64,000 bases of DNA, from positions 19,465,161 through 19,529,160 of the forward strand of contig OW204009.1 of assembly GCA_934047225.1 (NCBI GenBank). Reading direction: 5' to 3'. The stretch is from Ypsolopha sequella. Lineage: Eukaryota; Arthropoda; Insecta; Lepidoptera; Ypsolophidae. The translations under genes were made by a program, and so were the position numbers. How positions within the stretch are numbered: the stretch's first letter is position 1; each line of letters opens with the position of its first letter. The notes under the pieces were generated by a model that was given only the letters and a program-made list of their open reading frames with translations, ran no database searches and was not told the DNA's origin. Of this stretch, positions 26,635 to 62,281 are shown one piece after another.

Positions 26635-27121
26635 AGTAAATTTCTAACTTCTATAGATTAGAAAAAAATCAAATTTAAAAGGTGTAGTACTTAGTTTTGC
26701 AGGCCAGTGTATATTAAAAGTTTATTTATTTTATGTAGCAATATATATATGATTAAAATAATAGGTAAAATATATATTATACAAGGTGAAATCCAATCAA
26801 CCGCCCAAACCCATACCGGAGACCCGGCCAGGGACCAGGAACAAGGTTCAATGATCACCAACCGAGCCCCCAGCACAAATCCAGGCGGCCGGCCGACTAA
26901 ATCCCATCCTATATTACGTACTACTAGGTTACATATATAAATACATGCCTACCGCCGCCAATTCGATTAGTCTTTCTAAGAAGAAGGGCAAGAGACTTAG
27001 CAAGGTCATGTCTTGTTTTTAACATAAAACTTATACTATACAAATTACTTATATCTACTTTAACTAAGGGATAAGAAAATACAAGACAGCAGGAATTCAG
27101 GATAATGAAAAAAAAGAAAAA

Positions 27122-28956: not shown

Positions 28957-29247
28957 GTGCCCCTACAAAACCTCGCAACGTGACCGTCGCGAGCATCGTT
29001 TACGACCAGTATACGATCGAGTGGGAGGAGCCGGAGTACGACGGTGGCTCGCTCATCAGCGGCTACCACCTACAGTACAGTTTGCGCGGCCAGTACGGCG
29101 AGGACCCTATGTGGCTAGACAGTGACAGCGTGCTGGGGGATCTGCACACTCTAACTGTCACACTCGACCCTAACGAGATGCTGCAGTTCCAAGTGACAGC
29201 TTACAACGCGTACGGGCCCGGTCCTCCCAGTGATATTGTGTATGTGG
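28957..29247 (+). CDS. Exon E2: fibronectin type III domain 1
   Basis: A single exon encodes one complete FN3 domain of about 97 residues. It begins APTKPRNVTV, has the conserved B-strand Trp (YTIEWEEPEYDGGS), the GYHLQY C-strand, the LDPNEMLQFQVTAYNAYGPG F-strand region and ends SDIVYVG. It lies between TTCCTAG (acceptor ending at 28956) and GTAAGT (donor at 29248). Both introns are phase 1, so a Gly codon is split at each border. The wording EYDGGSLISGY is typical of FN3 domains in titin-like muscle proteins and in cell-surface receptors. Which protein this is could not be decided. GC-rich third positions mark it as host coding sequence. Confidence 0.92.
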
Positions 29248-30245
29248 GTAAGTGGGGGACTTAGGACGCCCTAATGTCTTCTTCACACATGGGTTGGTGG
29301 GGGACCTAGCAATAGCTTGCCCTAATGTCTACTTCACACATGGGTAATGGGGGGGAAATAGCACACCATAATGTCTTCTTCACACACGGGTTGGTGGGGG
29401 ACCTAACACGCACTAATGTCTACTTGACGCATGGGTAATGGGGTGGAAATAGCACACCATAATGTCTTCTTCACACATGGGTTGGTGGGGGACCTAACAC
29501 GCACTAATGTCTACTTGACGCATGGGTAATGGGGGGGAAATAGCACACCATAATGTCTTCTTCACACATGGGTTGGTGGGGGACCTAACACGCACTAATG
29601 TCTACTTGACGCATGGGTAATGGGGGGAAATAGCACACCATAATGTCTTCTTCACACATGGGTTGGTGGAGGACCTAACACGCACTAATGTCTACTTGAC
29701 GCATGGGTAATGGGGGGGAAATAGCACACCATAATGTCTTCTTCACACATGGGTTGGTGGGGGACCTAACACGCACTAATGTCTACTTGACGCATGGGTA
29801 ATGGGGGGAAATAGCACACCATAATGTCTTCTTCACACATGGGTTGGTGGAGGACCTAACACGCACTAATGTCTACTTGACGCATGGGTAATGGGGGGGA
29901 AATAGCACACCATAATGTCTTCTTCACACATGGGTTGGTGGGGGACCTAACACGCACTAATGTCTACTTGACGCATGGGTAATGGGGGGAAATAGCACAC
30001 CATAATGTCTTCTTCACACATGGGTTGGTGTAGGACCTAACACGCACTAATGTCTACTTGACGCATTGGTAATGGGGGGGAAATAGCACACCATAATGTC
30101 TTCTTCACACATGGGTTGGTGGGGGACCTAATACGCACTAATGTCTACTTCACGCATGGGTAATGGGGGGGAAATAGCACACCATAATGTCTTCTTCACA
30201 CATGGGTTGGTGGGGGACCTAACACGCACTAATGTCTACTTCACA
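29248..30245. repeat. 90-bp dimeric array starting at the E2 donor
   Basis: About 11 copies of a 90-bp unit made of two 45-bp halves: ACATGGGTTGGTGGGGGACC and GCATGGGTAATGGGGGGAAA, each followed by ATGTCTNCTTCACACA-like DNA. The first half-unit overlaps the exon end and donor (TATGTGGGTAAGTGGGGGAC at 29241-29260), so the array seems to have grown from the splice donor. Confidence 0.88.
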
Positions 30246-30928: not shown

Positions 30929-32880
30929 GGTCTCTCACATTAGTAGTACTCTCACATTAGTAGTACTCTCACATTAGTAGTACTCTCACATTAGTAGTAC
31001 TCTCACATTAGTAGTACTCTCACATTAGTAGTACTCTCACATTAGTAGTACTCTCACATTAGTAGTACTCTCACATTAGTAGTACTCTCACATTAGTAGT
31101 ACTCTCACATTAGTAGTACTCTCACATTAGTAGTACTCTCACATTAGTAGTACTCTCACATTAGTAGTACTCTCACATTAGTTGTACTCTCACATTAGTA
31201 GTACTCTCACATTAGTTGTACTCTCACATTAGTAGTACTCTCACATTAGTAGTACTCTCACATTAGTAGTACTCTCACATTAGTAGTACTCTCACATTAG
31301 TAGTACTCTCACATTAGTAGTACTCTCACATTAGTAGTACTCTCACATTAGTTGTACTCTCACATTAGTAGTACTCTCACATTAGTAGTACTCTCACATT
31401 AGTAGTACTCTCACATTAGTTGTACTCTCACATTAGTAGTACTCTCACATTAGTAGTACTCTCACATTAGTAGTACTCTCACATTAGTAGTACTCTCACA
31501 TTAGTAGTACTCTCACATTAGTAGTACTCTCACATTAGTTGTACTCTCACATTAGTAGTACTCTCACATTAGTAGTACTCTCACATTAGTAGTACTCTCA
31601 CATTAGTAGTACTCTCACATTAGTTGTACTCTCACATTAGTAGTACTCTCACATTAGTAGTACTCTCACATTAGTAGTACTCTCACATTAGTAGTACTCT
31701 CACATTAGTAGTACTCTCACATTAGTAGTACTCTCACATTAGTAGTACTCTCACATTAGTAGTACTCTCACATTAGTAGTACTCTCACATTAGTAGGTCT
31801 CTCACATTAGTAGTACTCTCACATTAGTAGTACTCTCACATTAGTAGTACTCTCACATTAGTAGTACTCTCACATTAGTAGTACTCTCACATTAGTAGTA
31901 CTCTCACATTAGTAGTACTCTCACATTAGTAGTACTCTCACATTAGTAGTACTCTCACATTAGTAGTACTTTCACATTAGTAGTACTCTCACATTAGTAG
32001 TACTCTCACATTAGTAGTACTCTCACATTAGTAGTACTCTCACATTAGTAGTACTCTCACATTAGTAGTACTCTCACATTAGTTGTACTTTCACATTAGT
32101 AGTACTCTCACATTAGTAGTACTCTCACATTAGTAGTACTCTCACATTAGTAGTACTCTCACATTAGTTGTACTCTCACATTAGTAGTACTCTCACATTA
32201 GTAGTACTCTCACATTAGTAGTACTCTCACATTAGTAGTACTCTCACATTAGTAGTACTCTCACATTAGTAGTACTCTCACATTAGTAGGTCTCTCACAT
32301 TAGTAGTACTCTCACATTAGTAGTACTCTCACATTAGTAGTACTCTCACATTAGTAGTACTCTCACATTAGTAGTACTCTCACATTAGTAGTACTCTCAC
32401 ATTAGTAGTACTCTCACATTAGTAGTACTCTCACATTAGTAGTACTCTCACATTAGTAGTACTCTCACATTAGTAGTACTCTCACATTAGTAGTACTCTC
32501 ACATTAGTAGTACTCTCACATTAGTAGTACTCTCACATTAGTAGTACTCTCACATTAGTAGTACTCTCACATTAGTAGTACTCTCACATTAGTAGTACTC
32601 TCACATTAGTAGTACTCTCACATTAGTAGTACTCTCACATTAGTAGTACTCTCACATTAGTAGTACTCTCACATTAGTAGTACTCTCACATTAGTAGTAC
32701 TCTCACATTAGTAGTACTCTCACATTAGTTGTACTCTCACATTAGTAGTACTCTCACATTAGTAGTACTCTCACATTAGTAGTACTCTCACATTAGTAGT
32801 ACTCTCACATTAGTAGTACTCTCACATTAGTAGTACTCTCACATTAGTAGTACTCTCACATTAGTTGTACTCTCACATTA
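30929..32880. repeat. 17-bp satellite, about 115 copies
   Basis: Unit CTCTCACATTAGTAGTA, highly uniform, starting about 28 bp after the E3 donor. Marker variants are TTGTA for TAGTA and GTAGGTCT. The last occurs at the start, at 31793 and at 32286. The latter two are 493 bp (29 units) apart, which points to a higher-order duplication inside the array. The pyrimidine-rich CTCTCAC strings are not followed by a credible exon. Confidence 0.95.
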
Positions 32881-33114: not shown

Positions 33115-33584
33115 CATAAAGAATAGAATAAATAGAATAGAAGTTGTTTATTTGTTTTTTTTTTAAACTAATCCGTAATAAAAAAGTAAAATTCCTTCAT
33201 TTCCATAAATAAGTAAGTACAGTTTTATACGGCGGTTCTCAAACGAAGCTAAGGCTTGGTACTTGAGAGTCAGGTGACTTCTTTACCAGTATTTATGTAC
33301 TACTTGGCTCGATGCCCTTTGTGGTTGGAACAATTACATTTTTCACATAACACATAGGTACTTGAAAATTTAAACTATAAAGGAAAAATTAAATAAAACC
33401 AATATCAACATGCAAGTATTTAAAAACAATTTTAAAAGACAATATAAATATTTATACTAAAACGTAAATTAATTCTCTTAAGCGTTTATATAAGTGACAG
33501 TTAGATAAAATTTATACGATTAAAAAAGAGGAGAGGAGAGGATAGAGAGGCAAGGAACAGGGAGTGAAATAGGATATAACCTGC

Positions 33585-33999
33585 TGTAACCGCGGGGTTA
33601 CAGAACTGCAGGGCTGATGGAATTTGAGGATATGACACGGAAGAAGAAAAGATTGTGGGAAACAATGTGGGTGCACTGACTGACCTGTGTTATATGTTTC
33701 GATGGGCCGGCAAATACGCCGCGTGTCGTCTCCTCTCGTTGGGCTGATTGAATTGGCGCTTTGGGCAGTGATGAGCTGGATGTCTTGGAGTAATACACAG
33801 CACTGATAAGATCACAAGACACGGTAGATATGCGAGATTGGTTGTGGCGTCGCGAATGTGTGCACACGTATTATTCGGTCGACGGTTGCGGCGAAACAGA
33901 GTGAGACCAGCGCCCGCGCGCGCCTCGACCGGCGCGCGGCGGGGGGGGAGTGGTCGTCCGCGCATGCGCGCGAATCACGCGTCACGCTGCGCGTGAACA
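33585..33999 (-). repeat. BEL/Pao 3' LTR
   Basis: 415 bp, TG...CA on both strands. In the element's sense it starts TGTTCACGCGCAGCGTGACG and ends CCCGCGGTTACA. The integrase ORF runs 18 bp into it. A C-rich tract (CCCCGGCCCCCCCCAGGA on the minus strand) lies immediately upstream where the polypurine tract is expected. Confidence 0.92.
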
Positions 34000-35187
34000 T
34001 CCTGGGGGGGGCCGGGGCTGCGACTCCTCTTGAGCTGAATCCAACGGCAGCCTGGCTATCTTGAACACAGGTCGTCGCAGATTTCCATGAGCTGTGCCCA
34101 AATCCACAACTCGGATCACTCCATCCTTGCCAGGTATCGTGCGGAGAATTCTCCCCAACTTCCATTGGAGCGGAGGCAGGTCATCCTCTTTGATGAGGAC
34201 CAGTTCACCCACTTGAGGAGGGGAAGAAGGGGAGAGCCATTTGGAGCGGGTTTGCAGGGTATGGAGGTAGGATCTGGACCAGAGAGTCCAAAAGCGCTGA
34301 GAGAGCGCTTGAATGAGTTGAAACCGTTTAAGAGCAGATATGGGTCTGTCGTCAAAAGACTGCTCAGGTAGAGCGGTGAGTGGACGACCAATAATGAAAT
34401 GTCCGGCCGTGAGAGGTTCAAAGTCCGTAGGGTCGGATGAAATTGGGCAGAGGGGTCTTGAGTTGAGTACAGCCTCAATTCGAGCCAAAAGAGTAGAGAA
34501 TTCTTCAAAAGTGAGGTGCTGTTCACCTATCACGCGATAAAGTAGTTGCTTGGTGGATTTTACGTTTATTTCGTGCAGAGCGCCGAACCAAGGCCCTTTA
34601 GGCGGGTTCAGTAACCAAGTTATGTGCTGATTCGCGAGCTTGTGAGTGATTGCATCATTGTTTGACCTGAGGAAGTTCTGAACTTCAATGAGTTGATTCC
34701 TAGCACCTACATAGTTTGTGCCGCAGTCTGAGCGAATGAGAACCGGAGTACCGCGACGTGAGATAAAACGTTGCAATGCCGCAAAGAACGCTTCCGTTGA
34801 GAGTGCAGATACTGGTTCCAAATGAACCGCCTTTGTTGCGAGGCAAACGAAAATACAAAAGTACGCTTTTAAGAGTTTCGCGTTCCGCAACGTGCTGGAT
34901 TTAACGAAGAAGTGGCCAGCAAAGTCCGTCGTGACGTGACTAAAAACTGGCTGAGGAGTAACTCTGTCTACTGGGAGATCAGCCATGAGCGGAGCCTTAG
35001 GCTGAGCGCGGCACCGGAAACATCTAATACATTTAAACACGCGGTGTCTAATAATACGACGAGCGGACAGAATCCAGTACTGCTGGCGTAATATGGCGTG
35101 TAATGTGTCAGCTCCAGGGTGGCAGTGTATTGTGTGATAGTGATCTATAATGAGATCTACGAGCGGAGTTGAGCTGGGTAGAATGAG
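33982..35187 (-). pseudogene. BEL/Pao integrase region, separated by Gypsy insertion
   Basis: C-terminal third of the BEL pol polyprotein. The zinc-binding part (ADTLHAILRQQYW, then CIRCFRC) begins at about 35187. The catalytic core follows with D in HVTTDFAGHF, D in RSDCGTNYVGA and E in GALHEINVKSTK. The C-terminal domain with WSRSYLHTLQTRSKW and GELVLIKEDDLPPLQWKLGR is the DUF5641-type tail of BEL/Pao. The first Met of the long frame is at 35040, but homology continues upstream without a Met because this was internal to pol. It stops at 33982. A TGA and about 15 unrelated bases lie at the junction with the Gypsy LTR. Confidence 0.88.
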
Positions 35188-35200
35188 TCAACAAGTAGAA

Positions 35201-35291
35201 TGGAACGTCAATGAAACAAGGGAGCTAATGGCTGACTGATTTATTCCATATGTGCATCTACCTACATGTAACATGTGTCGCATACCCTACA
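35201..35291 (-). repeat. Gypsy 3' LTR, 91 bp
   Basis: In sense orientation it begins TGTAGGGTATGCG and ends TTGACGTTCCA. It contains AATAAA within ATGGAATAAATCAG. Identical by eye to the 5' LTR. Confidence 0.92.
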
Positions 35292-35304
35292 TTTTCTCCC
35301 CCTT
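35292..35304 (-). promoter_or_regulatory. Gypsy polypurine tract
   Basis: The minus strand reads AAGGGGGAGAAAA immediately before the 3' LTR TGTAGG. This is the expected position and composition for the plus-strand primer of reverse transcription. Confidence 0.8.
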
Positions 35305-35354
35305 AAAACTTGACAATTAAACAAATTAATAAATAAAGTAAACCTAAAAGTAAT

Positions 35355-38300
35355 CTAATTATTTTTAGAACAAGCTCTTGCTCTGTGAGCTCTATTGTAC
35401 GCACGCAGTGCTCGAGCTGAAGCGTCGGGCAGCGGCGACGACGGCGGTGTCGGTTCCGCCGCGGGGCCCGCACCCACCGCGGAGGACCCGGCGCCATCCC
35501 CACCCTCCGACGCGTCCTCGAATGTATCGTCAGCACCCACGTCCACTGGCTCAACACTACCGTTGGGGTTTGGTACTATGCTCGCCCGAGATAGCGAGTA
35601 CCGACTTTTGGGATCCGTCACGATTATCTGATCCTGGTGCCTACGCCACTCAACTCCGCGACCCATATCTACTTTGAACGAAACCGGTCCCGTTCGTTCC
35701 TTTATTTCCCCTGGAGACCATTTCCCTCCCCTTACGGTGTAGTCGCGCGCGAGCACCGCGTCCCCCACGGCCAAAGCCCGTGTGGTGCCGCCCGCAGCAG
35801 CCACCTGTCGCTCCTGCGCCGCACGCGCCACGACGGCGACGTCGGGCCGCAGCGCGTCCAGGCGCCCGCGCAACTGCCGACCCAGCAGCGCCACCGCGGG
35901 CGAGACTCCGGTAGTCGCATGCGGACAGTTCCTATATTGAAATAGGAACCTACTTAAGGCGGTACTGACATTTTCACCTTCATGTATAGCTCTCTTAATA
36001 GCCTTCTTAATAGTTTTAACCGCATTCTCTGCAGCCCCATTCCCTTGTGGTCTACGGGGTGCTGACGTCACATGTCTTATACAATTATTTTCACAATATT
36101 TTTTAAACTCTAAAGAAAAGAATGGGGGCCCATTATCGGTTACAAGTTGTGACGGTAATCCAAACCTAGCGAAAACAGATCTAAAAACATTAATAGTCGC
36201 ATGTGCGTCGGTGTTTCTCATCAGCATGGTTTCTATCCACTTTGAATGGGCATCTACCATTATCAAATATCTTTTGCCTCCACAGTCAGCAAAATCAGCG
36301 TGTATACGCTGCCACGGATTTAACGGAAACTCCCACGGGTGGAGGTGTGCGCGCGGCGGTGCGTCGCGTACCGCGCGGCAAGCACCGCACGCGCGGCACA
36401 GCTCCTCTATGTCGCGGTCTAAACTGGGCCAATACACATAATTACGTGAAATATTTTTCATCTTGTTGATCCTTAAATGGCCCTCATGAATTTCTTGTAA
36501 TACTTGTTGCTGAAGTTTAGGAGGAATAACAATCCTATATTTGTATATTATACACCCCAAATCAACAGTTAATTCCTGTTTCCGAGAAAAATACGGCCTT
36601 TCCTCGTCACAACTGGAAACCGATGGCCACCCAAAACACACATAACCATAAATTTTACTCAACAAAATATCGCGTTTGGTTTCCTTAGCTATATTCTTAA
36701 AATTAACAGGTAAGCATTCTTCCACTAAATTAATGTAACTCACAGAATTAGAGGGACGAGCCACCCGCGACAATGGCAACCTTGACAGAGCATCGGCCGG
36801 ACCATTATCCGCCGATCGAACAAACTCGACACTGAAGTCATACGCCGCTAATCGCGCCGCCCAACGCTGCAGACGGCTAGCCGCCGTTTGCGGTATTCCA
36901 CCCTTCTTACCAAAAATATAACTTAATGGTTGATGATCTGTTCTTAGCAGAAATTTTCTTCCAAACAAGAATTGATGGTGTTTTGTTATACCAAAATAAA
37001 TGGCTAACGCCTCTTTATCGAGTTGACTGTAATTACCCTCTGCGGCGGAGAGCGTGCGCGACGCGCAGCTGACCGGCCGCTCGGTGCCGTCGGGGTATCG
37101 GTGTGCCAGCACCGCGCCCAGACCGTACGAGCTGCTGTCCACCGACAGCACGAGCGGCCTCCCTTCCTCGTAATGAGCTAAAACACTGTCACTCAACAGA
37201 GCCTTTTTTGCATTTGTGAAGGCTTCCTCACAGTCAGAGTCCCATTTCCAGCTTACCTCCTTTCTTAATAAGTTGTGTAGAGGGTGAAGCATCACACTCA
37301 AATTAGGTATAAATTTGGCGTAATAATTAACCATCCCCAAAAAACTTTTAAGCTGCGATATATCTCTAGGTTGGGGCGCACCAGAAATGGCCTCTATCTT
37401 TACAGGATCGGGCCTTAATCCTTCTTTGTTAATTATAAACCCTAAATACTTAACGCTATCTTCTAAAAACTTACATTTGCTAAGTTTGATAGTAAGTCCC
37501 ATATTACGTAATCTATCCAGTACTGCTCTTAAATTACTCAAATGTTCGCGCTCATTTCGCCCTGTTACACAGATATCGTCCAAAAAAACCACAGAACCCG
37601 GTATCCCGCGTAACGTTTCCTCCATAATTTTCTGGAATTTTTCAGGAATGCACGACAAACCGTACGGTGTACGGCGATAGACAAACGTGCCTACATGTGT
37701 AGTGATTGCCGTATACGGCTGTGAACCCTCCGTGAGTAAACACTGTTCAAATGCGTGAGAAAGGTCAATTTTGGTGTATTTTTCCCCACCACTAAGAATA
37801 GTAAACAACTCGTCAATACGAGGCAGTGGATAGAAGTCTCTCATTAACTTGGGATTAATCGTGATCTTATAATCACCACAAATACGGACGTCGCCGTTTT
37901 CTTTAATGACAGGTACAATAGGGGTTCCGTAGTCAGAGTGGTCGATTCTGTATACGGTCCCGTCACTCTCGAGGCGCGCCAATTCGCGCTCCACCCGCGC
38001 CTTAAGCGCCAGGGGTACTGGCCTCGCACGTACGTAAACCGGTTTGTTATCGGTTAGCTGTAGCTGGATAGGTTTTTTACAAGTGCCTAACTTATCGGTA
38101 AATACTTCGGGATATTCAATACAAAGTTGGTTCACGAACCGATTCTCAGAGATTTCGTAAAGATTTATTTGCGTAACTTTTAGTGCTCTAATCCATTCTC
38201 GACCTATTAGAGGGCGGCTACCCCCCCTAATGATATAAAGTCGTAAATCACTGACCCGTACATCTCCTAATGTAACGTCTACACATATGTATCCCTGAGA

Positions 38301-39428
38301 TTCGATTTGTGCTCCTGAATAACTGCGTAATATTAAATTATCTTGATGTATAAGTTTATGTGAAAACATACGTAGATACAGTTCATCATTAATCGCTGAA
38401 ATGCGACTTCCCGTGTCCATTTCACACTGAAGTTGTTTACCGTCCACAGATAAATTAATAAAGTACGGCTTGTTACCTTGCGCAGTCACCTCAATGTTAT
38501 ACATTCCTTCGTCCGAAGACTCATCCGTCAGATAGTGTTGCTGCCGATTACCGTAAGAACGACTACTGTTACGCACTTGTCTACACATTGCTTTAAGATG
38601 TCCCCTCTCATTACACTCGTCACAATTGTACTGCATGTATCGGCACCTGTCAGCGCGGTGCGCCTTGCCGCACCGCCAGCACTGTGCCCCCGCGGCCATC
38701 GCACCGCCGCCGCCGCCTGCACTCGCGCCGCGCGGCCCGCTACCGCCGCCGCCTGCTCCCGCGCCGCGTGGCCCGTTGCCGCCGCCGCCTGTGCCCACGC
38801 CGCGCGGCGCGTTGCCGCCGCCGCCACGTCGCGCGCTGCGCCGGGTTTGCGTGTACATTAGGCCCTCGCCCGTGTCACCGCCTCCGCCACCTGAGGTCGT
38901 CGCGACGCCGGTGGCGCCGCTCACCTCCGCGTGTCTCTCCGCAGCCTCTAGAGCCAGCGCTAGCTCCACCGCCTCCTTGTACTTGATGTTCTTCTCAGCA
39001 AATATTCTAGAACGCATTGCATCGTTGGCCAAACCCGAAACAAATTGGTCGCGCAAGTTTTCCTCCAAGTTCACGCCAAAATTACACGTAGCCGCTAAAT
39101 GCTTAAGGTCTTGCAAATACGCGGTTAGCGGCTCACCGGCGCGCTGCCGCCGCAACCGGAACACATGTCGCGCTAAATGTTCCGTCACTAATCGCACTAG
39201 TTCGTCAAAGGTTCTACTTTCGGGATGCTGGGGTGAACACAAATCGCACATCAAGGAATACGTGGCCTCTCCAACTACCGTAATTAGCATCGGCACTTTC
39301 AAATCCGGTTTTATTTCATTTAATAAAATAAACTGATTTACACGACGGATGTAGGCCGGCCACTGTTTAGAAGTTAAATCGAAAGGTTCTAATTTCCCGA
39401 TTGGCATTATAACAATCGATATTAGCAC
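35355..39428 (-). CDS. Gypsy (Mag-like) gag-pol polyprotein, uninterrupted
   Basis: A 1,357-residue single frame. The true start may be the second Met (39407, MPIGKLEPFD). Gag is in the first 230 residues, followed by a Gly/Arg-rich linker and two zinc knuckles (CWRCGKAHRADRC and CDECNERGHLKAMC). Protease: CEMDTGSRISA. Reverse transcriptase: KIDLSHAFEQCLL, RRTPYGLSCIPEKFQ and FLDDICVTG (Phe-Leu-Asp-Asp instead of Tyr). RNase H: LSVDSSSYGLGAVLAH. Integrase: HLRINKMKNISR and CRACGACR zinc finger, with core residues in HADFAD, VTDNGPPF and PQGNGAAENAVK. Gag and pol are fused without frameshift. No stop is seen, so it may be functional. Confidence 0.94.
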   Translation of the reverse strand: MLISIVIMPIGKLEPFDLTSKQWPAYIRRVNQFILLNEIKPDLKVPMLITVVGEATYSLMCDLCSPQHPESRTFDELVRLVTEHLARHVFRLRRQRAGEPLTAYLQDLKHLAATCNFGVNLEENLRDQFVSGLANDAMRSRIFAEKNIKYKEAVELALALEAAERHAEVSGATGVATTSGGGGGDTGEGLMYTQTRRSARRGGGGNAPRGVGTGGGGNGPRGAGAGGGGSGPRGASAGGGGGAMAAGAQCWRCGKAHRADRCRYMQYNCDECNERGHLKAMCRQVRNSSRSYGNRQQHYLTDESSDEGMYNIEVTAQGNKPYFINLSVDGKQLQCEMDTGSRISAINDELYLRMFSHKLIHQDNLILRSYSGAQIESQGYICVDVTLGDVRVSDLRLYIIRGGSRPLIGREWIRALKVTQINLYEISENRFVNQLCIEYPEVFTDKLGTCKKPIQLQLTDNKPVYVRARPVPLALKARVERELARLESDGTVYRIDHSDYGTPIVPVIKENGDVRICGDYKITINPKLMRDFYPLPRIDELFTILSGGEKYTKIDLSHAFEQCLLTEGSQPYTAITTHVGTFVYRRTPYGLSCIPEKFQKIMEETLRGIPGSVVFLDDICVTGRNEREHLSNLRAVLDRLRNMGLTIKLSKCKFLEDSVKYLGFIINKEGLRPDPVKIEAISGAPQPRDISQLKSFLGMVNYYAKFIPNLSVMLHPLHNLLRKEVSWKWDSDCEEAFTNAKKALLSDSVLAHYEEGRPLVLSVDSSSYGLGAVLAHRYPDGTERPVSCASRTLSAAEGNYSQLDKEALAIYFGITKHHQFLFGRKFLLRTDHQPLSYIFGKKGGIPQTAASRLQRWAARLAAYDFSVEFVRSADNGPADALSRLPLSRVARPSNSVSYINLVEECLPVNFKNIAKETKRDILLSKIYGYVCFGWPSVSSCDEERPYFSRKQELTVDLGCIIYKYRIVIPPKLQQQVLQEIHEGHLRINKMKNISRNYVYWPSLDRDIEELCRACGACRAVRDAPPRAHLHPWEFPLNPWQRIHADFADCGGKRYLIMVDAHSKWIETMLMRNTDAHATINVFRSVFARFGLPSQLVTDNGPPFFSLEFKKYCENNCIRHVTSAPRRPQGNGAAENAVKTIKKAIKRAIHEGENVSTALSRFLFQYRNCPHATTGVSPAVALLGRQLRGRLDALRPDVAVVARAAQERQVAAAGGTTRALAVGDAVLARDYTVRGGKWSPGEIKERTGPVSFKVDMGRGVEWRRHQDQIIVTDPKSRYSLSRASIVPNPNGSVEPVDVGADDTFEDASEGGDGAGSSAVGAGPAAEPTPPSSPLPDASARALRAYNRAHRARACSKNN

Positions 39429-39463
39429 GCGTTTTCAAAAATAAATCCCATCCTCGTCGCCAA

Positions 39464-39554
39464 TGGAACGTCAATGAAACAAGGGAGCTAATGGCTGACT
39501 GATTTATTCCATATGTGCATCTACCTACATGTAACATGTGTCGCATACCCTACA
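39464..39554 (-). repeat. Gypsy 5' LTR, 91 bp
   Basis: Same 91 bp as 35201-35291. In the sense direction TTGGCGACGAGGATGGGA follows directly and is the likely primer-binding site. It lies about 35 bp before the start of the reading frame. Confidence 0.92.
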
Positions 39555-42459
39555 GGTGTTGAGCGTCATACCTAATTGACGCGTGAAAGAGACGACCACC
39601 GACTCTCAAGAGGCCGTCCTTTATGAAGGGCGAGAGACGCTGGAGCCGAACGGGACAAACCTTTTCAGTCTGGATACGATTAATGTCTTCAGCAAACTCA
39701 TTGTGCTGAACAGAGCGGACCCAGTGCAACAGAGCGTCCCTGCGTTCACTAGCTGTCAACGGACCAGAGCGCCGTGCATCTGGGCTGTGCCGACAATTGA
39801 ATATGAACCTTTTAATACAAGCCGTCACTCCGACGAGCTTGTCAAGTGAGCTGTAGCGAGTGAGCAAGTCCAGATCGATATCTGGGACTGCTATGTGTGC
39901 TGGTACCTTTTTGGGCTTAAGGCCTGGGAGAGCATGATGGCCTAGAGCGGGTGGCATCTTGGGCCAAGTGCAGGTAGGTTCTTTGAGCCAACTGGGTGAC
40001 CACCAAAGGTCATGAAGTGAGAGAGACTGGGCAGACATGCCTCTGCTTGCACAGTCAGCAGGGTTGAGGTTCGTGGGTACATGCCTCCACGTATGGCTAG
40101 TTGAAGTAGCTGTGATCTTAGCCACTCGATTGGCCTCGAAAGTCTGTAATCGGTGAGGTGGGGTGTTGAGCAATGCCAACACTATTGTGCTATCTGACCA
40201 GCATGTGTGTGTTTGAATGGCTATATGAGCTGACAGTTGGGCTGACACTCGAGTCATGAGCTGAGATAAAAGAGTCGCGGCTGACAACTCCAATTTCGGG
40301 ATTGAGAGACGAGTCTTTATGGGTGCGACCTTGGACTTGCCAATGATTAGGTGTACATTGACATGTCCAGTGGTATTGCGCTCATGAAGGTAGATAACGG
40401 CACCAAAGCCAGCCTCTGATGCGTCCGCGAACCCGTGAAGTGAGTAAGTAGACGTGGGCTTGTACTTACAAATGTGCCGAGGTAAACGGAGGTTTGAGAG
40501 CTGAGGAAGATCCTCTGAGATGTGTTGCCACTCTGTGTGGACTTCTTCAGAGATAGGCTCATCCCATCCTATTTTCAGAAGCCAAAGCTTCTGGAGAAGA
40601 ATCTTTGCGCGGAAGATGACTGGAGTAACCCAGCCATTGGGGTCATAGAGAGACGCTACTGTACTGAGAATGGAGCGCTTTGTGACTTGAGCATGAGTGG
40701 GCAGAGAAATGCGATAAGTGAACTCATCAGTTTGAGGAATCCACTGTATTCCCAGAACCTTAATGGAATTAGAGTCGGGACTGAAGTCAAAGTCCTTGGG
40801 CATGTCGCACTGGTCATCTGGGAATCGTTCAAGGAGCTGGGGCGAGTTGGAGGTCCATTTACTGAGCTGAAAGCCACCTAGGGCGAGTAACTCGATCAGT
40901 TCGCTTTGGAGCGACTGAGCAGATTCTACAGAATCTGCACCTGAGAGAATGTCGTCCACAAATATTGATTTGCGGAGGACCTGAGCAGCGTGGGGGTAGC
41001 GATGACCTTCGTCATCAGCCAATTGGAGTAAAGTGCGGATGGCATGGTATGGGCTGGACCTTAATCCATATGTGACGGTATTAAGGGCATACGTGAGCAA
41101 GGGCTGGTCGGGTGAAGACCGCCAGAGAATGAGTTGAAAACGTCTTTGCTCTGGGTGAATGAGTATATTTCGGAACATCATTCGGATGTCTGTGCTGAAA
41201 ACTTGTGAGTGGATCCTGAAGGACATGATAATGTCAACAATATCTTGCTGAAGAGCTGGACCTGTATGAAGACAATCATTTAGATTGACGCCGTTTGAGC
41301 TCTTACAACTTCCGTCAAACACACAGCGTAACTTTTCTGATCCTGGCTTGAATATGCCATGATGTGGGATATAGAAATGGGATTTATGAGCAAAGGTATT
41401 GGGGTGACACGGCAACATATGGCCCAATTTTATGTAATCTGACATGAATTCTACGTATTTCGAGCGGAAGGGCGGGTTCGCTTGCAACTTCTTCTCTAAG
41501 TTGAGAAACCTGCGCAGTGCAATAGCGTGAGTGGAACCTAATGTCGGCGCGTTGTGCAGAAAGGGCAGTGTAACCACATATTGACCTGATGGTTCACGAG
41601 TAGTTGTGGTGCGGAAAATGTCCTCACACTGATCCTCTAATGGGCTGGTATGCTTGTAGGTTTGGGGTTCCTCGGATTCCCAAAACCTCTCAAGACTTTT
41701 GTGAATGTCATGAGTGGAATGCTCTGAGTCCGTGTGAGAGCCGACAATGTGAACTGAGTTGACCTGATTCGTGGGTGAAGTATGTAAACTTTCGAAAGGT
41801 CCAATCAATGTAAAATCAAATATCGTGCCGAAGGCTATAGGCTTGCCAGGGCCGAGCGAAACCTTGGTTCCGTCTAACACTTGACCAAGAACGTCAGATC
41901 CTAGTATTAGATCAACCGGAGCTGGTGTGTGATATTCTCGATCAGCAAGAGGAATTGGTGGGTGACCTGTTAACTGAGCGAGATCTGGAACCTTTTCCAA
42001 CGGTAGGTACCCAGTTACGTTCTTCAATATATGGGCTGTGGCCGTGATCATAGGTGTGTCACGGTGAGTAGGTCGGCATACAATTGTGATTGATGCCTTT
42101 GAGTTTTGTGTGTGCTGATTTCCAACTCCTGCGATTTTTAGAGATGTATGTTTTAATGGTAAATTTAAAATTGTGGCCATGCGCTGAGAACAAAGAGTCA
42201 GCATACTTCCACAGTCTAACAGGGCTCGTGCTGAGTGAAATTGACCATTTACGTCTGCTATTTTAAGTGAGACGGTTGGCAACAAAATTGGCGTGTTGGT
42301 GACGTTCACTACACGTTGTGCGGAGTTACAGTAATTTTCTGTTGGAGTTGAAGTCATTGAGTGACAATGAGCTGAGTGTGTATGTGATGAGTGTGTGTGT
42401 GATGAGTGTGCTGAGTTCTGGTCGTCCTCGCCTTCATAGTGCTCTGTTATTGTAGGTAG
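39555..42459 (-). pseudogene. BEL/Pao protease, reverse transcriptase and RNase H
   Basis: Pol frame in the same reading frame as gag, directly after the UGA at 42460-42462. The first Met is at 42357, but the frame is open from the stop codon. Aspartic protease: ARALLDCGSMLTLCSQ (Asp-Cys-Gly). Reverse transcriptase: FDGSCKSSNGVNLNDCLHTG, VFSTDIRMMFRNILIHPEQ and KSIFVDDILSGAD (FVDD). A peptidase-A17-like connector follows, then RNase H (GFADASEAGFGAVIYL, CWSDSTIVLALLN). It runs to YDAQH and then stops in the Gypsy LTR at about 39550. Otherwise it appears undamaged. The broken end separates it from integrase. Confidence 0.9.
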
Positions 42460-42477
42460 TCACTGTTGACTACCTAC
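42452..42477 (-). promoter_or_regulatory. Putative gag-pol readthrough hairpin with UGA-CUA
   Basis: In the sense of the element the sequence is GTAGGTAGTCA, loop ACAG, then TGACTACCTAC: a perfect 11-bp stem. The gag stop codon UGA is the first triplet of the 3' arm and is followed by CUA C. Gag and pol are in the same frame on the two sides, and 34 sense codons separate the UGA from the first pol Met. UGA followed by CUA is the best known eukaryotic readthrough context. A hairpin that includes the stop codon itself is unusual. Function is inferred. Confidence 0.6.
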
Positions 42478-44028
42478 CCGAGACCTACTTGGCGATCGCG
42501 ATTGAGTGGGCGAGTTGGGATGGGACGTATATGCCTGTGTAGCATGTGCCGAACGGTACTGAGGCTCATGCGCTGAGCGCTGTCTGGGCTGCTCACGTAG
42601 AGACGGAGGCTGCAAATGAGCAGATGAGCGTGTCGGAGACATGGCCCCATGGCGATGCAGTGAAGTATGGTGGTCAGACCGCCCACACTCCTTGCATGCA
42701 CGTGTAGACCTGCACTCGTTCTCATAATGAGGACCCAAACAGCGTCGGCACCGGTTGCGTGAGTTCACAAAGTCCCACCGACCTTGAACTGGCTGGTTGT
42801 TGAACTCTGGGCAGGCGATGAGTTTGTGTCCCCTATTCCTGCAGTATGGGCATGGCATACCACCAGTAGGGGAAGAAGGTTGAGCCGAATAATTCTGTCG
42901 GCGAGTGGGTGATGGGGATGATCGGGCCGAGTAAACTGGCGCTGTCTCAAATGCCATAAATGGTTGACGAATAGGACGGGGGGAGCGATTGTCCTGCCGA
43001 GGAGCTATGGGGCGGAACTCTTGATGAGCCTGGTAGGGCTGACGTGGAGTACCTCGAGTGGGTTGAAGCAGCTTATTGAGCTGAGCGAGCCTTTCTGACG
43101 GGCCGAGCCGTGATGAAGAAGGAGCCTCCTGTGACGCAAGGAACGATGACTCATTCTCCTTGCAGCGTGCGTGCTCTTCCAGAAACTCAATGAGGTTCTT
43201 GAGCGTGGGCAGAGTTGCACGAGATCCGTACTTCCGCTCGAAAAGAGTGCGGAGCTCGCCTTGTAATTTTCGCACCACCATTGACACGAAAACATAGTCA
43301 GAATCCTTCATGGGCAGATCCAGATTGCGGAGAGCGCTTTGCGCTGAGATAAGCGGAATTAAGAATGATGTGCGGATATCCGATCGCATGTGGATGTGCG
43401 GAAGGTTCATTATAATGTCCACAAACCGGTCAATGAGTACACGACGATTGTCGTAACGCTTGGTGAGAATTTCCATGGCTATGGGATAATTCTCGTTGGT
43501 AGGGTAGAGGTGTTTCACCATATCATGTGCCTCACCCTTTAGGGCGCCTAACAAGTAATGCAGTTTGACAGCATCCGAGACTGTAGCCATCTCACTGACG
43601 AGGCTCCTAAAAACGGCAATAAATGAGGGCCATTCTTCAACGTTCGAATGAAACTCGGGTATGGGTATTTTTGGTAGAACACCAACGGGTGTACCTGGGC
43701 TGAGGGGTTGCGTCTTGTCCGGAAGAGCTGATTTTACTTTTAAATTTTCGAATGCCACTAGTATAGCATCATAATTGCTAAGTGCCGACTGAAAATTTTT
43801 TGTGTAGGTTGCCTCAGTTTCGTCGGACAAATCCTCATCGTCAAGGATCTCGTAATATACGTTCTCTAACTTAGTTTTAACGCTTTGTATGTTTGCGTAA
43901 CGAGCGGTGAAGTCCGCCACAGAATAAGTTTTTCTGTCGCCTGCCTCTACCGCCGCACCGATCTCCTTTAACAGAATTATCGCCTTTACGGCCTCACGAA
44001 ACATCGCGGCTTGTGATTTCGAAGGCAT
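42460..44028 (-). CDS. BEL/Pao Gag protein
   Basis: 522-residue open frame from ATG 44028. The N-terminal half matches the DUF1759-type gag of BEL/Pao elements (IPEFHSNVEEWPSFIAVFRS, LHYLLGALKGEAHDMV). The C-terminal part is Pro/Ser/Arg-rich with zinc knuckles CPYCRNRGHKLIAC and CRRCLGPHYENEC, followed by CKECGRSDHHTSLH. It ends RVGSQQ at a UGA. Gag forms the capsid of the cytoplasmic particle and binds element RNA. The frame is intact. Confidence 0.92.
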   Translation of the reverse strand: MPSKSQAAMFREAVKAIILLKEIGAAVEAGDRKTYSVADFTARYANIQSVKTKLENVYYEILDDEDLSDETEATYTKNFQSALSNYDAILVAFENLKVKSALPDKTQPLSPGTPVGVLPKIPIPEFHSNVEEWPSFIAVFRSLVSEMATVSDAVKLHYLLGALKGEAHDMVKHLYPTNENYPIAMEILTKRYDNRRVLIDRFVDIIMNLPHIHMRSDIRTSFLIPLISAQSALRNLDLPMKDSDYVFVSMVVRKLQGELRTLFERKYGSRATLPTLKNLIEFLEEHARCKENESSFLASQEAPSSSRLGPSERLAQLNKLLQPTRGTPRQPYQAHQEFRPIAPRQDNRSPRPIRQPFMAFETAPVYSARSSPSPTRRQNYSAQPSSPTGGMPCPYCRNRGHKLIACPEFNNQPVQGRWDFVNSRNRCRRCLGPHYENECRSTRACKECGRSDHHTSLHRHGAMSPTRSSAHLQPPSLREQPRQRSAHEPQYRSAHATQAYTSHPNSPTQSRSPSRSRVGSQQ

Positions 44029-45280
44029 CTTAATTTTGTTAATGTAGGTGGTTGATTACTAAGACAAAATACGCAACGAGTTTGAGCTGAACTATAAGAG
44101 CGGACGTACAACCAAAATAATTAATGAGACAGATGAACAGAGCTGAGACACTTGCGCGGATGAAGTAACAATGACTATGTTCAAACGGAATACGGAACTC
44201 TTAAATAAACACGAAAGAGAGAAAAAAAAATTTTTTTTTTTAAACAACCTGTTTATGAGCTGATAAACCAACGTGGAACACCCTATATGTGTACCATAAA
44301 CAATAAAAGGCAGACAATAACAGGATAAAACTGTTCGGAAAACTTTTACCGTAACACAAGATTACCGTAACATAAAATATCAAAAAGGGTTGATGACCTT
44401 GTTCACTCCTATGTTATTATGCTATTTATATAATAAAATACCTATCTACTGCCTCGAACTCATAAACAACAAAGAATGCGTTTACCTAGCCGAAATCGGA
44501 TCTAAATGAGCGGACAATCCAATGATGCAGATCAAACTATGGTAACGTAATAATACGTAAACGTAAACGTTCGTTACGTAATAACTTATGTATACGTGGG
44601 TTTTACGTATGTGCGTAACTTACGTAAATGCACGAAATAAAGCAAATTTATACTCGCACCGAAAAAATATCTCGCAAGATACCTAAACTATCTTTGACAG
44701 TGGGGAAATTACCCACTCCGCGGGTAAAAATTGGGTAAATTGGGTCGGGTCGGGTCGTGTAAATTTGGGTTTAATAAAGAAATATAGTGGACTGTATTAA
44801 ACAATTGGGCTGAATGGATAATCAATTCCAGAACACAAGATAAGGTGTCAAATTAATACCCGGCACCGGGTCTATAAAATTTTGTTATTTGTTTAAACAA
44901 AATGGGTGATCCAAAAGGATATAATTATATTATCTGAACTGAATAATAATAACAAACGGGATGAACGTGAGTTTATTCTGTAAATGGGCGGGGGGGGCCG
45001 GTTCTATACCGATAAATGGAATGTTCCAGGCGGCGGCGGTTCTAATTACCTACCCGCAATAGGTATTCGAGACCACAAAATATTTTTTGCCGGGAAAGGG
45101 GGCAAAATATTTAACCGGGTGAAAATGGACTGTAAATCGACGGGGGCTGGTTCAAACAAAGTTACGGGCCGGCGGGGGGGAGACGGGGGGTGATATAAAC
45201 CAAAAATTTTCCGCTCGACCAAAATTTTTCTTGTATTGAAAATGGACTGTAGTAAATAGAGGGGGGGGGGGCTGGTTCTA
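44029..45280 (-). other. BEL/Pao untranslated leader
   Basis: About 1.25 kb between the primer-binding site and gag, without a credible ORF. It is rich in homopolymer tracts: a G-run of 10 at 45261-45270 and a nine-T stretch near 44230. It also has repeated ACGTAA motifs near 44550-44640. Confidence 0.65.
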
Positions 45281-45296
45281 ACGGTTCGAAGGGCCA
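45281..45296 (-). promoter_or_regulatory. BEL/Pao primer-binding site
   Basis: The plus strand reads ACGGTTCGAAGGGCCA three bases before the LTR. This has the form of a tRNA 3' end (GGTTCGAA of the T-arm, then CCA), so the element's sense strand would pair with a tRNA primer. Which tRNA was not determined. Confidence 0.65.
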
Positions 45297-45299
45297 AAA

Positions 45300-45714
45300 T
45301 GTAACCGCGGGGTTACAGAACTGCAGGGCTGATGGAATTTGAGGATATGACACGGAAGAAGAAAAGATTGTGGGAAACAATGTGGGTGCACTGACTGACC
45401 TGTGTTATATGTTTCGATGGGCCGGCAAATACGCCGCGTGTCGTCTCCTCTCGTTGGGCTGATTGAATTGGCGCTTTGGGCAGTGATGAGCTGGATGTCT
45501 TGGAGTAATACACAGCACTGATAAGATCACAAGACACGGTAGATACGCGAGATTGGTTGTGGCGTCGCGAATGTGTGCACACGTATTATTCGGTCGACGG
45601 TTGCGGCGAAACAGAGTGAGACCAGCGCCCGCGCGTGCCTCGACCGGCGCGCGGCGGGGGGGGAGTGGTCGTCCGCGCATGCGCGCGAATCACGCGTCAC
45701 GCTGCGCGTGAACA
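45300..45714 (-). repeat. BEL/Pao 5' LTR
   Basis: 415 bp. Differs from the 3' LTR by two substitutions that I noticed (T/C near 33833 versus 45546, and GCGCGCGCC versus GCGCGTGCC). Confidence 0.92.
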
Positions 45715-45719
45715 CCTGC

Positions 45720-48390
45720 CTACGTTGGTGTTCCAAGAGATTTTCTGTTTCTTCGTAGGAAGGAGTCAATAACCATTTCTCCATCAGTTTTTTCACTTCG
45801 AATACAGTTAGGGTTTTATTTTTAGTGTGGCAGACTTGAGTAATTTTATTGTAAATATATCGGGTTAAGTAAGGTGGTAGACGTTGTGCAAAGGTTGTGT
45901 GGGTTCTACTGATAGGAATCCTATAAACCCTTCTGGCCATTATAGTTGAGATATCAAATATGTAATAATGTCAAATATCAAATATGTCTATCGATGACAG
46001 CTTTGTGAATATAGAGTTGACATACGTTCAGTGCCTTATCCTCCTTGTATAGAGTTGACATACGTTCAGTGCCTTATCCACCTTGTATAGAGTTGACATA
46101 CGTTCAGTGCCTTATCCTCCTTGTATAGAGTTGACATACGTTCAGTGCCTTATCCTCCTTGTATAGAGTTGACATACGTTCAGTGCCTTATCCTCCTTGT
46201 ATAGAGTTGACATACGTTCAGTGCCTTATCCTCCTTGTATAGAGTTGACATACGTTCAGTGCCTTATCCACCTTGTATAGAGTTGACATACGTTCAGTGC
46301 CTTATCCACCTTGTATAGAGTTGACATACGTTCAGTGCCTTATCCTCCTTGTATAGAGTTGACATACGTTCAGTGCCTTATCCACCTTGTATAGAGTTGA
46401 CATACGTTCAGTGCCTTATCCTCCTTGTATAGAGTTGACATACGTTCAGTGCCTTATCCACCTTGTATAGAGTTGACATACGTTCAGTGCCTTATCCTCC
46501 TTGTATAGAGTTGACATACGTTCAGTGCCTTATCCTCCTTGTATAGAGTTGACATACGTTCAGTGCCTTATCCTCCTTGTATAGAGTTGACATACGTTCA
46601 GTGCCTTATCCTCCTTGTATAGAGTTGACATACGTTCAGTGCCTTATCCTCCTTGTATAGAGTTGACATACGTTCAGTGCCTTATCCTCCTTGTATAGAG
46701 TTGACATACGTTCAGTGCCTTATCCACCTTGTATAGAGTTGACATACGTTCAGTGCCTTATCCTCCTTGTATAGAGTTGACATACGTTCAGTGCCTTATC
46801 CTCCTTGTATAGAGTTGACATACGTTCAGTGCCTTATCCTCCTTGTATAGAGTTGACATACGTTCAGTGCCTTATCCTCCTTGTATAGAGTTGACATACG
46901 TTCAGTGCCTTATCCTCCTTGTATAGAGTTGACATACGTTCAGTGCCTTATCCTCCTTGTATAGAGTTGACATACGTTCAGTGCCTTATCCTCCTTGTAT
47001 AGAGTTGACATACGTTCAGTGCCTTATCCTCCTTGTATAGAGTTGACATACGTTCAGTGCCTTATCCTCCTTGTATAGAGTTGACATACGTTCAGTGCCT
47101 TATCCTCCTTGTATAGAGTTGACATACGTTCAGTGCCTTATCCTCCTTGTATAGAGTTGACATACGTTCAGTGCCTTATCCTCCTTGTATAGAGTTGACA
47201 TACGTTCAGTGCCTTATCCTCCTTGTATAGAGTTGACATACGTTCAGTGCCTTATCCTCCTTGTATAGAGTTGACATACGTTCAGTGCCTTATCCTCCTT
47301 GTATAGAGTTGACATACGTTCAGTGCCTTATCCTCCTTGTATAGAGTTGACATACGTTCAGTGCCTTATCCACCTTGTATAGAGTTGACATACGTTCAGT
47401 GCCTTATCCTCCTTGTATAGAGTTGACATACGTTCAGTGCCTTATCCTCCTTGTATAGAGTTGACATACGTTCAGTGCCTTATCCTCCTTGTATAGAGTT
47501 GACATACGTTCAGTGCCTTATCCTCCTTGTATAGAGTTGACATACGTTCAGTGCCTTATCCTCCTTGTATAGAGTTGACATACGTTCAGTGCCTTATCCT
47601 CCTTGTATAGAGTTGACATACGTTCAGTGCCTTATCCACCTTGTATAGAGTTGACATACGTTCAGTGCCTTATCCTCCTTGTATAGAGTTGACATACGTT
47701 CAGTGCCTTATCCTCCTTGTATAGAGTTGACATACGTTCAGTGCCTTATCCACCTTGTATAGAGTTGACATACGTTCAGTGCCTTATCCTCCTTGTATAG
47801 AGTTGACATACGTTCAGTGCCTTATCCTCCTTGTATAGAGTTGACATACGTTCAGTGCCTTATCCTCCTTGTATAGAGTTGACATACGTTCAGTGCCTTA
47901 TCCTCCTTGTATAGAGTTGACATACGTTCAGTGCCTTATCCTCCTTGTATAGAGTTGACATACGTTCAGTGCCTTATCCTCCTTGTATAGAGTTGACATA
48001 CGTTCAGTGCCTTATCCTCCTTGTATAGAGTTGACATACGTTCAGTGCCTTATCCTCCTTGTATAGAGTTGACATACGTTCAGTGCCTTATCCTCCTTGT
48101 ATAGAGTTGACATACGTTCAGTGCCTTATCCACCTTGTATAGAGTTGACATACGTTCAGTGCCTTATCCTCCTTGTATAGGTTTTTTGTTGAAAATATTA
48201 AAGGCTTCCTTAGCATTATTTTTAAAACACCACGTTGAGCTCTTTCCGGTTCCAAAATAAAATGTTTTAGCTGCTCCACCCCTCGCCAAGATACAAAACG
48301 ACAGTAAAGATTCAGAAAGAACACAATGTGTTTCTTGAATGAAAGGTTTTCGTCGATTGTAACTCCTAAGTATTTAATACTTATTGTGTT
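45720..48390 (-). pseudogene. LINE B RT C-terminal part, split by its own 38-bp satellite
   Basis: Minus strand, from right to left. IKYLGVTIDENLSFKKHI (about 48330-48390) leads through RAQRGVLKIMLRKPLIFSTK to NLYKEDKALNVCQLYTR, where the 38-bp array begins (48180). After the array the protein resumes as LNVCQLYIHKAVI (about 46000) and RTHTTFAQRLPPYLTRYIYN up to EETENLLEHQRR at the BEL insertion. This is the usual LINE ORF2 C-terminus. An internal deletion between FKKHI and the C-terminal domain is likely. Confidence 0.78.
46016..48180. repeat. 38-bp satellite derived from LINE coding sequence, about 57 copies
   Basis: Unit GTATAGAGTTGACATACGTT plus CAGTGCCTTATCCTCCTT. On the minus strand it is the LINE B sequence for LYKEDKALNVCQL. 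The only common variant is TCCTCC versus TCCACC, in an irregular pattern. Because 38 is not a multiple of 3, the LINE frame is destroyed. Confidence 0.92.
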
Positions 48391-60277: not shown

Positions 60278-60329
60278 GTTCGTGCTACATATCTAGGCTA
60301 TTCGTGTGTTCATCTGTGTTCGTCTGTCT

Positions 60330-62273: not shown

Positions 62274-62281
62274 GTGAGCTC

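What the first reader, a model, noticed from the sequence alone, without database searches (positions are those of the whole stretch)
42452..42477. BEL/Pao gag stop UGA-CUA inside a perfect hairpin: readthrough switch
Gag and pol are in one frame with a single UGA between them. The codon is followed by CUA, a strong readthrough context, and lies in an 11-bp perfect stem (GTAGGTAGTCA / TGACTACCTAC, loop ACAG). Most BEL/Pao elements known to me use one long frame or frameshifting. Known readthrough signals usually have structure downstream of the stop, not around it. Pol is otherwise open, so the stop looks functional rather than decay.
Basis: partly seen in the sequence, partly recalled or inferred. 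Interest (0 to 1): 0.75.

Follow-up and report, generated by a model that had tools for sequence, protein, structure and literature searches.

The report
Leaky stop in moth-type BEL/Pao retrotransposon
A very abundant retrotransposon, of a kind seen in moths and butterflies, keeps one weak stop signal between its coat-protein and enzyme genes, most likely so that ribosomes now and then read past it to make a little enzyme; the hairpin around that stop is real, but nothing yet shows that it does anything.

Summary
On the minus strand an in-frame TGA (42462-42460), followed by CTA, lies in a perfect 11-bp hairpin (42452-42477) between gag and pol of a BEL/Pao element. It is not a private mutation: the host genome holds 798 junctions of this family (up to 3 mismatches); of the 100 listed, 99 have TGA and one TGG, and 724 junctions match exactly one of two TGA-bearing forms. 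Six of 14 aligned gag relatives end at the same residues, and several have separate gag and pol frames. Best reading: programmed UGA-CUA readthrough giving a minority Gag-Pol product, as proposed for fission-yeast Tj1-type elements. The hairpin is less secure: 425 junctions have the perfect stem, 299 a mismatch opposite the A of UGA, and both forms have multiplied; it would lie inside the ribosome when UGA is decoded, no stem-loop is predicted downstream, and no compensatory change was seen. 'Pol is otherwise open' is wrong for this copy, which a nested Ty3/gypsy element cuts, but 94 of 131 scored copies have a pol frame of 1,364-1,383 codons. Readthrough itself was not observed.

The parts
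33585..45714 (-). BEL/Pao LTR retrotransposon with a nested Ty3/gypsy insertion
   Evidence: LTR pair 99.3% identical in the raw alignment; 5-bp target duplication CCTGC at 33580-33584 and 45715-45719; DUF1759, Peptidase_A17, H2C2 and DUF5641 domains
45300..45714 (-). BEL 5' LTR (about 415 bp)
   Evidence: two internal substitutions against the 3' LTR, the other alignment differences being at the flank
33585..33999 (-). BEL 3' LTR
42460..44028 (-). gag frame from its first Met to TGA (522 aa; stop-to-stop frame 42460-44055): DUF1759 domain, two zinc-knuckle-like motifs, C-terminus ..SPSRSRVGSQQ
42460..42462 (-). gag stop UGA, followed by CUA CCU AC
   Evidence: 48 of 48 distinct copies, this one included; 99 of 100 listed junctions
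42452..42477 (-). 11-bp hairpin, loop ACAG, UGA at the start of the 3' arm; 8-bp core GTAGGTAG/CTACCTAC
39550..42459 (-). BEL pol frame, first part: protease (DCGS at residues 82-85) and Peptidase_A17; stops inside the gypsy LTR
33982..35187 (-). BEL pol, last part: Integrase_H2C2 and DUF5641
35199..39554 (-). nested Ty3/gypsy element: 93-bp LTRs, 100% identical, one 1,359-codon frame

Best explanation
The UGA is the genuine, maintained end of gag in this BEL/Pao family and its close relatives. Most ribosomes end there and release Gag. A minority insert an amino acid at UGA because UGA-CUA is a leaky context, and continue into pol to make Gag-Pol, which sets the Gag to Gag-Pol ratio. Shown by sequence: the in-frame UGA-CUA, its presence across hundreds of copies, separate gag and pol frames in relatives, and fewer amino-acid-changing than silent differences per site in pol. 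Inferred: that readthrough is the route to pol, and that CUA is the main driver. The hairpin most likely has a minor effect on decoding, another role, or none; it must be unfolded when the UGA is in the A site (from recalled ribosome dimensions).
For: 798 junctions genome-wide with up to 3 mismatches, reversed-pattern control 0; the 100 listed (all without mismatch, contigs C1-C4) are 99 TGA and 1 TGG. 425 and 299 junctions match exactly the two TGA-bearing forms. TGA-CTACCTAC in 48 of 48 distinct places, the window copy included. Eight fetched junctions of copies that the search tool gave unusually long open frames all have TGA (a ninth fetch, L086, missed the junction), as do L061, L009 and L022. 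Gag frame of 531 codons in 70 of 83 scored copies, 527 in 8, 536 in 4, 778 in 1, and the last has TGA. Pol: 59 amino-acid-changing against 76 silent changes, ratio per site 0.25. Relatives: six of 14 aligned gag proteins end in ..QQ or ..PQ at the same place, one of them shifted by one residue; gag-only and pol-only proteins share contig lengths in five cases. Of 16 pol-only relatives 9 start at the first Mets after the protease DCGS and 3 later still, so restart at those AUGs would lose the catalytic Asp. UGA CUA supports readthrough in Ustilago and HeLa cells (PMC4207609, abstract and passages) and about 1.5% alone (PMC4132726, abstract and passages). UGA CUA/CUG ends gag in fission-yeast LTR elements (PMC10085805, passages), and Tj1 without that stop gave virtually no transposition (PMC4600332, passages).
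Against: No translation data of any kind. Conservation among copies 93-100% identical at the junction largely reflects recent amplification. In the relatives only protein ends were seen, not which stop codon or what follows it; the gene callers chose the pol starts. P0033 (Scirpophaga, annotated model, partial) runs gag into pol without this C-terminus: a real exception or a spliced gene model. Pol-only frames also occur in five of the more distant hits (P0040-P0043, P0048), so a separate pol frame is not peculiar to this junction. The base after CUA is C, not the stronger G. This family has an in-frame AUG 105 nt after the T of the stop, so restart is not excluded.
Confidence: 0.8

Rival explanations
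1. Pol is translated separately, by restart at an AUG downstream of the gag stop or from another start; the UGA is a plain terminator.
For: An in-frame AUG lies 105 nt after the stop, before the protease domain. In Candida Tca2 the junction did not direct readthrough in yeast reporters (PMC2194720, abstract and passages).
Against: 12 of 16 pol-only relatives begin at or after the Met that follows the catalytic DCGS, so an upstream AUG is not a shared feature (gene callers chose those starts, and 3 of the 12 may be truncated models). The stretch before the AUG is open in 48 of 48 copies; the window +3 to +113 has 8 amino-acid-changing and 6 silent changes, ratio 0.37 (too few to lean on). UGA-CUA is a known leaky context.
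Confidence: 0.1
2. The hairpin is itself a readthrough or pausing element that surrounds the stop, a switch that works with UGA-CUA.
For: 11-bp stem over the stop in only 46 of 20,000 synonymous recodings; the 8-bp core and UGA-CUA unchanged in 48 of 48 copies; z = -5.0; the mismatch form still folds, 10 of 11 pairs; a longer outer stem is predicted.
Against: 299 junctions have a mismatch at the A of UGA, against 425 without, and form their own group of copies. No compensatory change in 10 haplotypes of 58 copies. The whole hairpin would be inside the ribosome at decoding (recalled dimensions). In Drosophila dfr the stimulating stem-loop lies downstream at a set distance (PMC13170385, passages). 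Relatives differ in the residues that the 5' arm encodes: VGG, EGSK, RGS. Invariant runs as long occur elsewhere in pol.
Confidence: 0.2
3. The hairpin is a by-product of coding for VGSQQ and of the CUA-CCU-ACA context, or serves RNA packaging rather than decoding.
For: 423 of 20,000 random synonymous recodings have a stem of 8 bp or more over the stop; GTAGGT occurs twice just upstream.
Against: The full 11 bp is rarer, 46 of 20,000.
Confidence: 0.45
4. Private mutation or decay.
For: The window copy is dead (nested insertion).
Against: 798 junctions, 99 of 100 listed with TGA; 94 of 131 scored copies have a pol frame of 1,364-1,383 codons.
Confidence: 0.01

Closest known systems
Fission-yeast LTR elements Tj1, Tosmo1-3, Tcry1 (Ty3/gypsy)
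   Same: One in-frame TGA between gag and pol, followed by CTA or CTG; readthrough proposed; the stop is needed for efficient Tj1 transposition (PMC10085805, PMC4600332, passages)
   Different: Ty3/gypsy in yeast, GAA before the stop; no hairpin around the stop was described in the passages seen
Murine leukaemia virus gag-pol readthrough
   Same: Same-frame gag and pol with one stop; readthrough makes Gag-Pol (PMC4178896, passages)
   Different: UAG, with a pseudoknot 8 nt downstream; here UGA-CUA, with no stem-loop predicted downstream (pseudoknots not modelled)
UGA-CUA(G) readthrough of animal and fungal genes (LDHB, MDH1, OPRL1, AQP4, Ustilago tpi1)
   Same: UGA followed by CUA (PMC4207609, PMC4132726, abstracts and passages)
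   Different: The four mammalian genes of PMC4132726 have G next (CUAG); here C (CUAC). Cellular genes, not retroelements
Candida Tca2 gag-UGA-pol
   Same: LTR element with gag UGA and pol after it (PMC2194720, abstract and passages)
   Different: Predicted 3' pseudoknot; readthrough was not detected in yeast reporters
Single-frame BEL/Pao elements (Achilles, Atlas virus; some other families in this genome)
   Same: BEL/Pao domain order
   Different: No stop between gag and pol (PMC4580426, PMC9094657, passages; loci L064, L065, L067, L071, L076, L077)

Membership tests
BEL/Pao (Belpaoviridae) retrotransposon | LTRs with short target duplication | tested here: met
   LTR pair and CCTGC duplication
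BEL/Pao (Belpaoviridae) retrotransposon | Domains typical of BEL/Pao: DUF1759 gag, Peptidase_A17, DUF5641 (association partly recalled) | tested here: met
Programmed stop-codon readthrough | Two frames in phase with one stop between | tested here: met
Programmed stop-codon readthrough | Leaky context (UGA CUA) | tested here: met
   context known from PMC4207609 and PMC4132726
Programmed stop-codon readthrough | Stop kept while the downstream frame is under selection | tested here: met
   99 of 100 listed junctions TGA; pol ratio 0.25 in 48 copies
Programmed stop-codon readthrough | Fusion protein made at a few percent | not testable with these tools
   needs reporter, profiling or proteomics
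Structure-stimulated (MuLV-like) readthrough | Stem-loop a few nt downstream of the stop | tested here: not met
   downstream stretches fold no better than shuffles, z = -0.35 and -0.96; pseudoknots and long-range pairing are not covered by that test
Conserved RNA hairpin at the stop | Compensatory base changes | tested here: inconclusive
   none in 10 haplotypes of 58 copies, but variation is too small, ten of the copies were picked for odd frames or the TGG, and no DNA of sister families was reached

The most novel reading that the evidence does not exclude
A readthrough element of a new layout: the stop codon sits at the loop end of a self-complementary hairpin, so that one short sequence (UGACUACCUAC) is both the leaky stop context and the 3' arm, and folding of the arm between successive ribosomes, or its binding by Gag, adjusts how often UGA-CUA is read through.
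Probability: 0.15. Interest if true: 0.75.

Novelty: new variant of a known kind. Interest (0 to 1): 0.5.

Why it matters
It would add BEL/Pao to the retroelements that set their Gag to Gag-Pol ratio with a leaky UGA-CUA stop, in hundreds of copies of one genome and with a gag stop in relatives from other genomes; the two BEL/Pao elements whose papers give the layout here (Achilles, Atlas virus) use one long frame. The same UGA-CU motif in fission-yeast Ty3/gypsy elements suggests independent adoption of one solution. The two natural hairpin versions in one genome make the role of the hairpin directly testable.

Tried and rejected
Private mutation or decay: rejected by 798 junctions and 99 of 100 listed with TGA. 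Downstream stem-loop: not found. Rfam match at the gathering cut-off: none in the window. tRNA: none. Solved-structure relatives of the pol part by sequence: none. Relatives in viral contigs: none by pol, exact hairpin or gag alignment (56 pattern hits, none confirmed).

Other BEL/Pao families of this genome: DUF1758 gave 91 matches, 34 with open frames of 1,677 codons or more and 21 with 1,340-1,527 (that column can read TGA through). Sixteen junction regions, picked mainly from rows with pol-sized frames, were read. Six run from gag into protease in one frame (L064, L065, L067, L071, L076, L077). L069 and L070 share an in-frame TAA where L064 has Gln. L072 has an in-frame TGA inside gag, before the zinc knuckles. 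L066, L068 and L074 have gag and protease in different, overlapping frames (frameshift layout or an indel; not decided). L062, L063, L073 and L075 are broken in other ways. None has TGA-CTA at the gag end. My first reading of the ten as plain decay was too simple.

The tool's 'open_frame_aa' was first read as exceptions (1,907, 1,921 and so on); it reads TGA through in some rows (531+1+1,017=1,549), and those checked have TGA in the DNA. Sister families: P0007 gave 84 matches at 53-56% identity, and those read at DNA level are this family; the planned search with P0012 did not complete.

Papers: BEL/Pao with readthrough was looked for. Listings showed 20 of 5,222, 15 of 13,364, 12 of 2,273, 12 of 15, 0, 1 and 1 papers; none seen there by title or abstract start reports it. 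PMC3118150 (BEL/Pao in metazoan genomes) has no 'stop codon', 'readthrough' or 'frameshift' in its text (term search). The library lacks most subscription papers, so this is weak.

Full report
What is there. On the minus strand, window 33585-45714 is a BEL/Pao element with LTRs 99.3% identical in the raw alignment and a 5-bp target duplication CCTGC. Its gag frame (first Met at 44028, 522 aa, DUF1759, two zinc-knuckle-like motifs) ends at TGA 42462-42460. Pol goes on in the same frame from 42459 with the protease DCGS and a Peptidase_A17 domain. A Ty3/gypsy element with identical 93-bp LTRs (35199-39554) sits inside pol, so this copy's pol frame ends after 969 codons; the integrase part resumes at 35187.

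The hairpin. The 26 nt at 42452-42477 form an 11-bp perfect stem with loop ACAG, and the UGA is the first three bases of the 3' arm. Only two perfect stems of that size (loop 3-12) exist in the window. The 71-nt junction folds at -26.5 kcal/mol, z = -5.0. With the peptide kept and codons drawn at the element's own usage, 46 of 20,000 draws have 11 bp or more over the stop and 423 of 20,000 have 8 bp or more. So it is unusual, but the test was made for a feature picked after the fact.

Is the stop private? No. The host genome is held (867 Mb, 151 contigs). A pattern with the stop codon left free found 798 junctions with up to 3 mismatches, reversed control 0. The first 100 are listed, all without mismatch and on contigs C1-C4: 99 TGA, 1 TGG (the TGG copy read again). 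The other 698 were not seen codon by codon, but 425 and 299 places match exactly two longer forms that hold TGA. Of 60 loci fetched are distinct places, the window copy among them, and 48 of 48 have TGA-CTACCTAC. The tool scored 131 of 5,475 candidates for the pol side: 94 have frames of 1,364-1,383 codons, 35 shorter, 2 longer, 1,418 and 1,441. It scored 83 of 5,253 on the gag side: 70 with a 531-codon frame, 8 with 527, 4 with 536, 1 with 778; the 778 copy has TGA. In one search more rows had long frames; eight were read at DNA level and 8 of 8 have TGA, a ninth fetch (L086) missed the junction, and L009 and L022 have TGA too. So the open-frame column sometimes reads TGA through and cannot by itself show exceptions.

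Selection. Among the 48 copies the pol stretch (+3 to +1001) has 59 amino-acid-changing and 76 silent differences, ratio per site 0.25; +3 to +113, which ends just past the first AUG, has 8 and 6, ratio 0.37. The last number is too small to lean on. Several copies have early stops in gag or pol.

Relatives. A search with gag gave 18 proteins; 14 were aligned, at 42-67% identity. Six (P0001-P0005, P0013; 62-67%) end at the same place, in ..QQ or ..PQ after an SPSR or SPIS stretch like ours, P0002 with one residue more; others end nearby with other residues; P0011 and P0014 do not align at the end. A search with the pol side gave 30. Sixteen proteins of that and the earlier pol search are pol-only at 59-82% identity over the matched part: P0019, P0024-P0032, P0034-P0038 and P0045. 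Gag-only and pol-only proteins share longest-contig lengths in five cases (6242, 5874, 5935, 9044347, 20615616), which I take as the same contig. 9 of the 16 start at residues 86 or 94 of our pol, just after the protease DCGS (82-85), 3 later and 4 earlier. Named sources are Euphydryas, Choristoneura, Arctia, Dendrolimus and Bombyx; the rest are unnamed assemblies. P0033 (Scirpophaga, partial, annotated model, 63%) runs gag into pol and lacks this gag end: a possible exception. More distant hits (27-42%) are mixed: P0020, P0021, P0039, P0044, P0046, P0047 and P0049 run from gag or its zinc knuckles into protease, while P0040-P0043 and P0048 are pol-only; the length limit of the search (up to 1.75 times 969) also left out full-length fused proteins. 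That the gag stop arose from a single-frame ancestor is therefore only a guess.

Other families in this genome. DUF1758 gave 91 matches, 34 with open frames of 1,677 codons or more and 21 with 1,340-1,527 (same caution about TGA). Of 16 junction regions read, six are one frame from gag to protease, two share an in-frame TAA where a relative has Gln, one has a TGA inside gag, three have gag and protease in different overlapping frames, and four are otherwise broken. None has TGA-CTA at the gag end.

The hairpin in other copies. 34 of 48 copies have the perfect 11-bp stem; 14 of 48 have T to G in the 5' arm, opposite the A of UGA. Genome-wide exact counts are 425 and 299. The second form still folds (10 of 11 pairs, -10.8 against -15.9 kcal/mol). 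On a tree of the 48 copies the mismatch form makes one group of 11 plus three scattered copies. Both forms have multiplied with UGA-CUA intact, so the full stem is not needed for spread. Ten haplotypes of 58 copies (ten of these picked for odd frames or the TGG) show no compensatory change; one copy breaks a pair of the outer stem too. The 41-nt invariant run from the stop is matched by other runs of 41-47 nt in pol, so invariance says little.

How it most likely works. UGA-CUA is a leaky context (PMC4207609 and PMC4132726, abstracts and passages). Ribosomes mostly stop, and sometimes insert an amino acid and make Gag-Pol. Readthrough itself was not observed. The hairpin spans -15 to +10 about the stop; from recalled ribosome dimensions it must be unfolded when UGA is in the A site, so it cannot act as the downstream structure known from Drosophila dfr (PMC13170385, passages) or murine leukaemia virus (PMC4178896, passages). 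Downstream stretches do not fold better than shuffles. I give the hairpin a 0.2 chance of a real effect on decoding.

Known kinds. Closest are the fission-yeast elements Tj1, Tosmo and Tcry1 with GAA-TGA-CT(A/G) at the gag end (PMC10085805, passages); Tj1 without that stop gave virtually no transposition (PMC4600332, passages). This is a new variant: the same idea in another superfamily, with a hairpin of unproven role. No report of BEL/Pao readthrough was seen in the listings, three of which show only the top of thousands.

Limits. The DNA of sister families was not reached, and the search meant to find them in this genome did not complete.

Noticed in passing
35199-39554 (-): Nested Ty3/gypsy element with unusually short (93-bp), identical LTRs and one 1,359-codon frame; no clear target duplication at its ends.
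   Followed up: partly
46010-48180: 57 copies of a 38-bp unit, 99% alike, just outside the BEL 5' LTR; other long arrays at 1-5165 (41/82 bp), 30932-32880 (17 bp, 115 copies), 29245-30241 (91 bp), 56150-56762 (47 bp), 60385-61207 (60 bp).
   Followed up: no
7250-8509 (+): PIF1-like helicase frame, perhaps the end of a Helitron.
   Followed up: no
24736-26643 (-) and 56919-59360 (+): Two RVT_1 reverse-transcriptase frames, probably non-LTR elements.
   Followed up: no
11817-13281 (+): Tc1/mariner-like transposase pieces (HTH_Tnp_Tc3_2, DDE_3).
   Followed up: no
59977-62821 (+): Frames with fibronectin type III matches next to a 60-bp repeat array.
   Followed up: no
G000:C2:33683094-33683120 (L087): The one listed copy with TGG in place of the gag TGA.
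   Followed up: partly
about 40 nt after the stop, in other copies: A 9-nt in-frame insertion separates two groups of copies; both hairpin forms occur with and without it, which suggests exchange between subfamilies.
   Followed up: partly
L066, L068, L074: In other BEL/Pao families of this genome gag and protease lie in different, overlapping frames: a frameshift layout or an indel.
   Followed up: partly
L069, L070: Two copies of another BEL/Pao family share an in-frame TAA between zinc knuckle and protease where L064 has Gln.
   Followed up: partly
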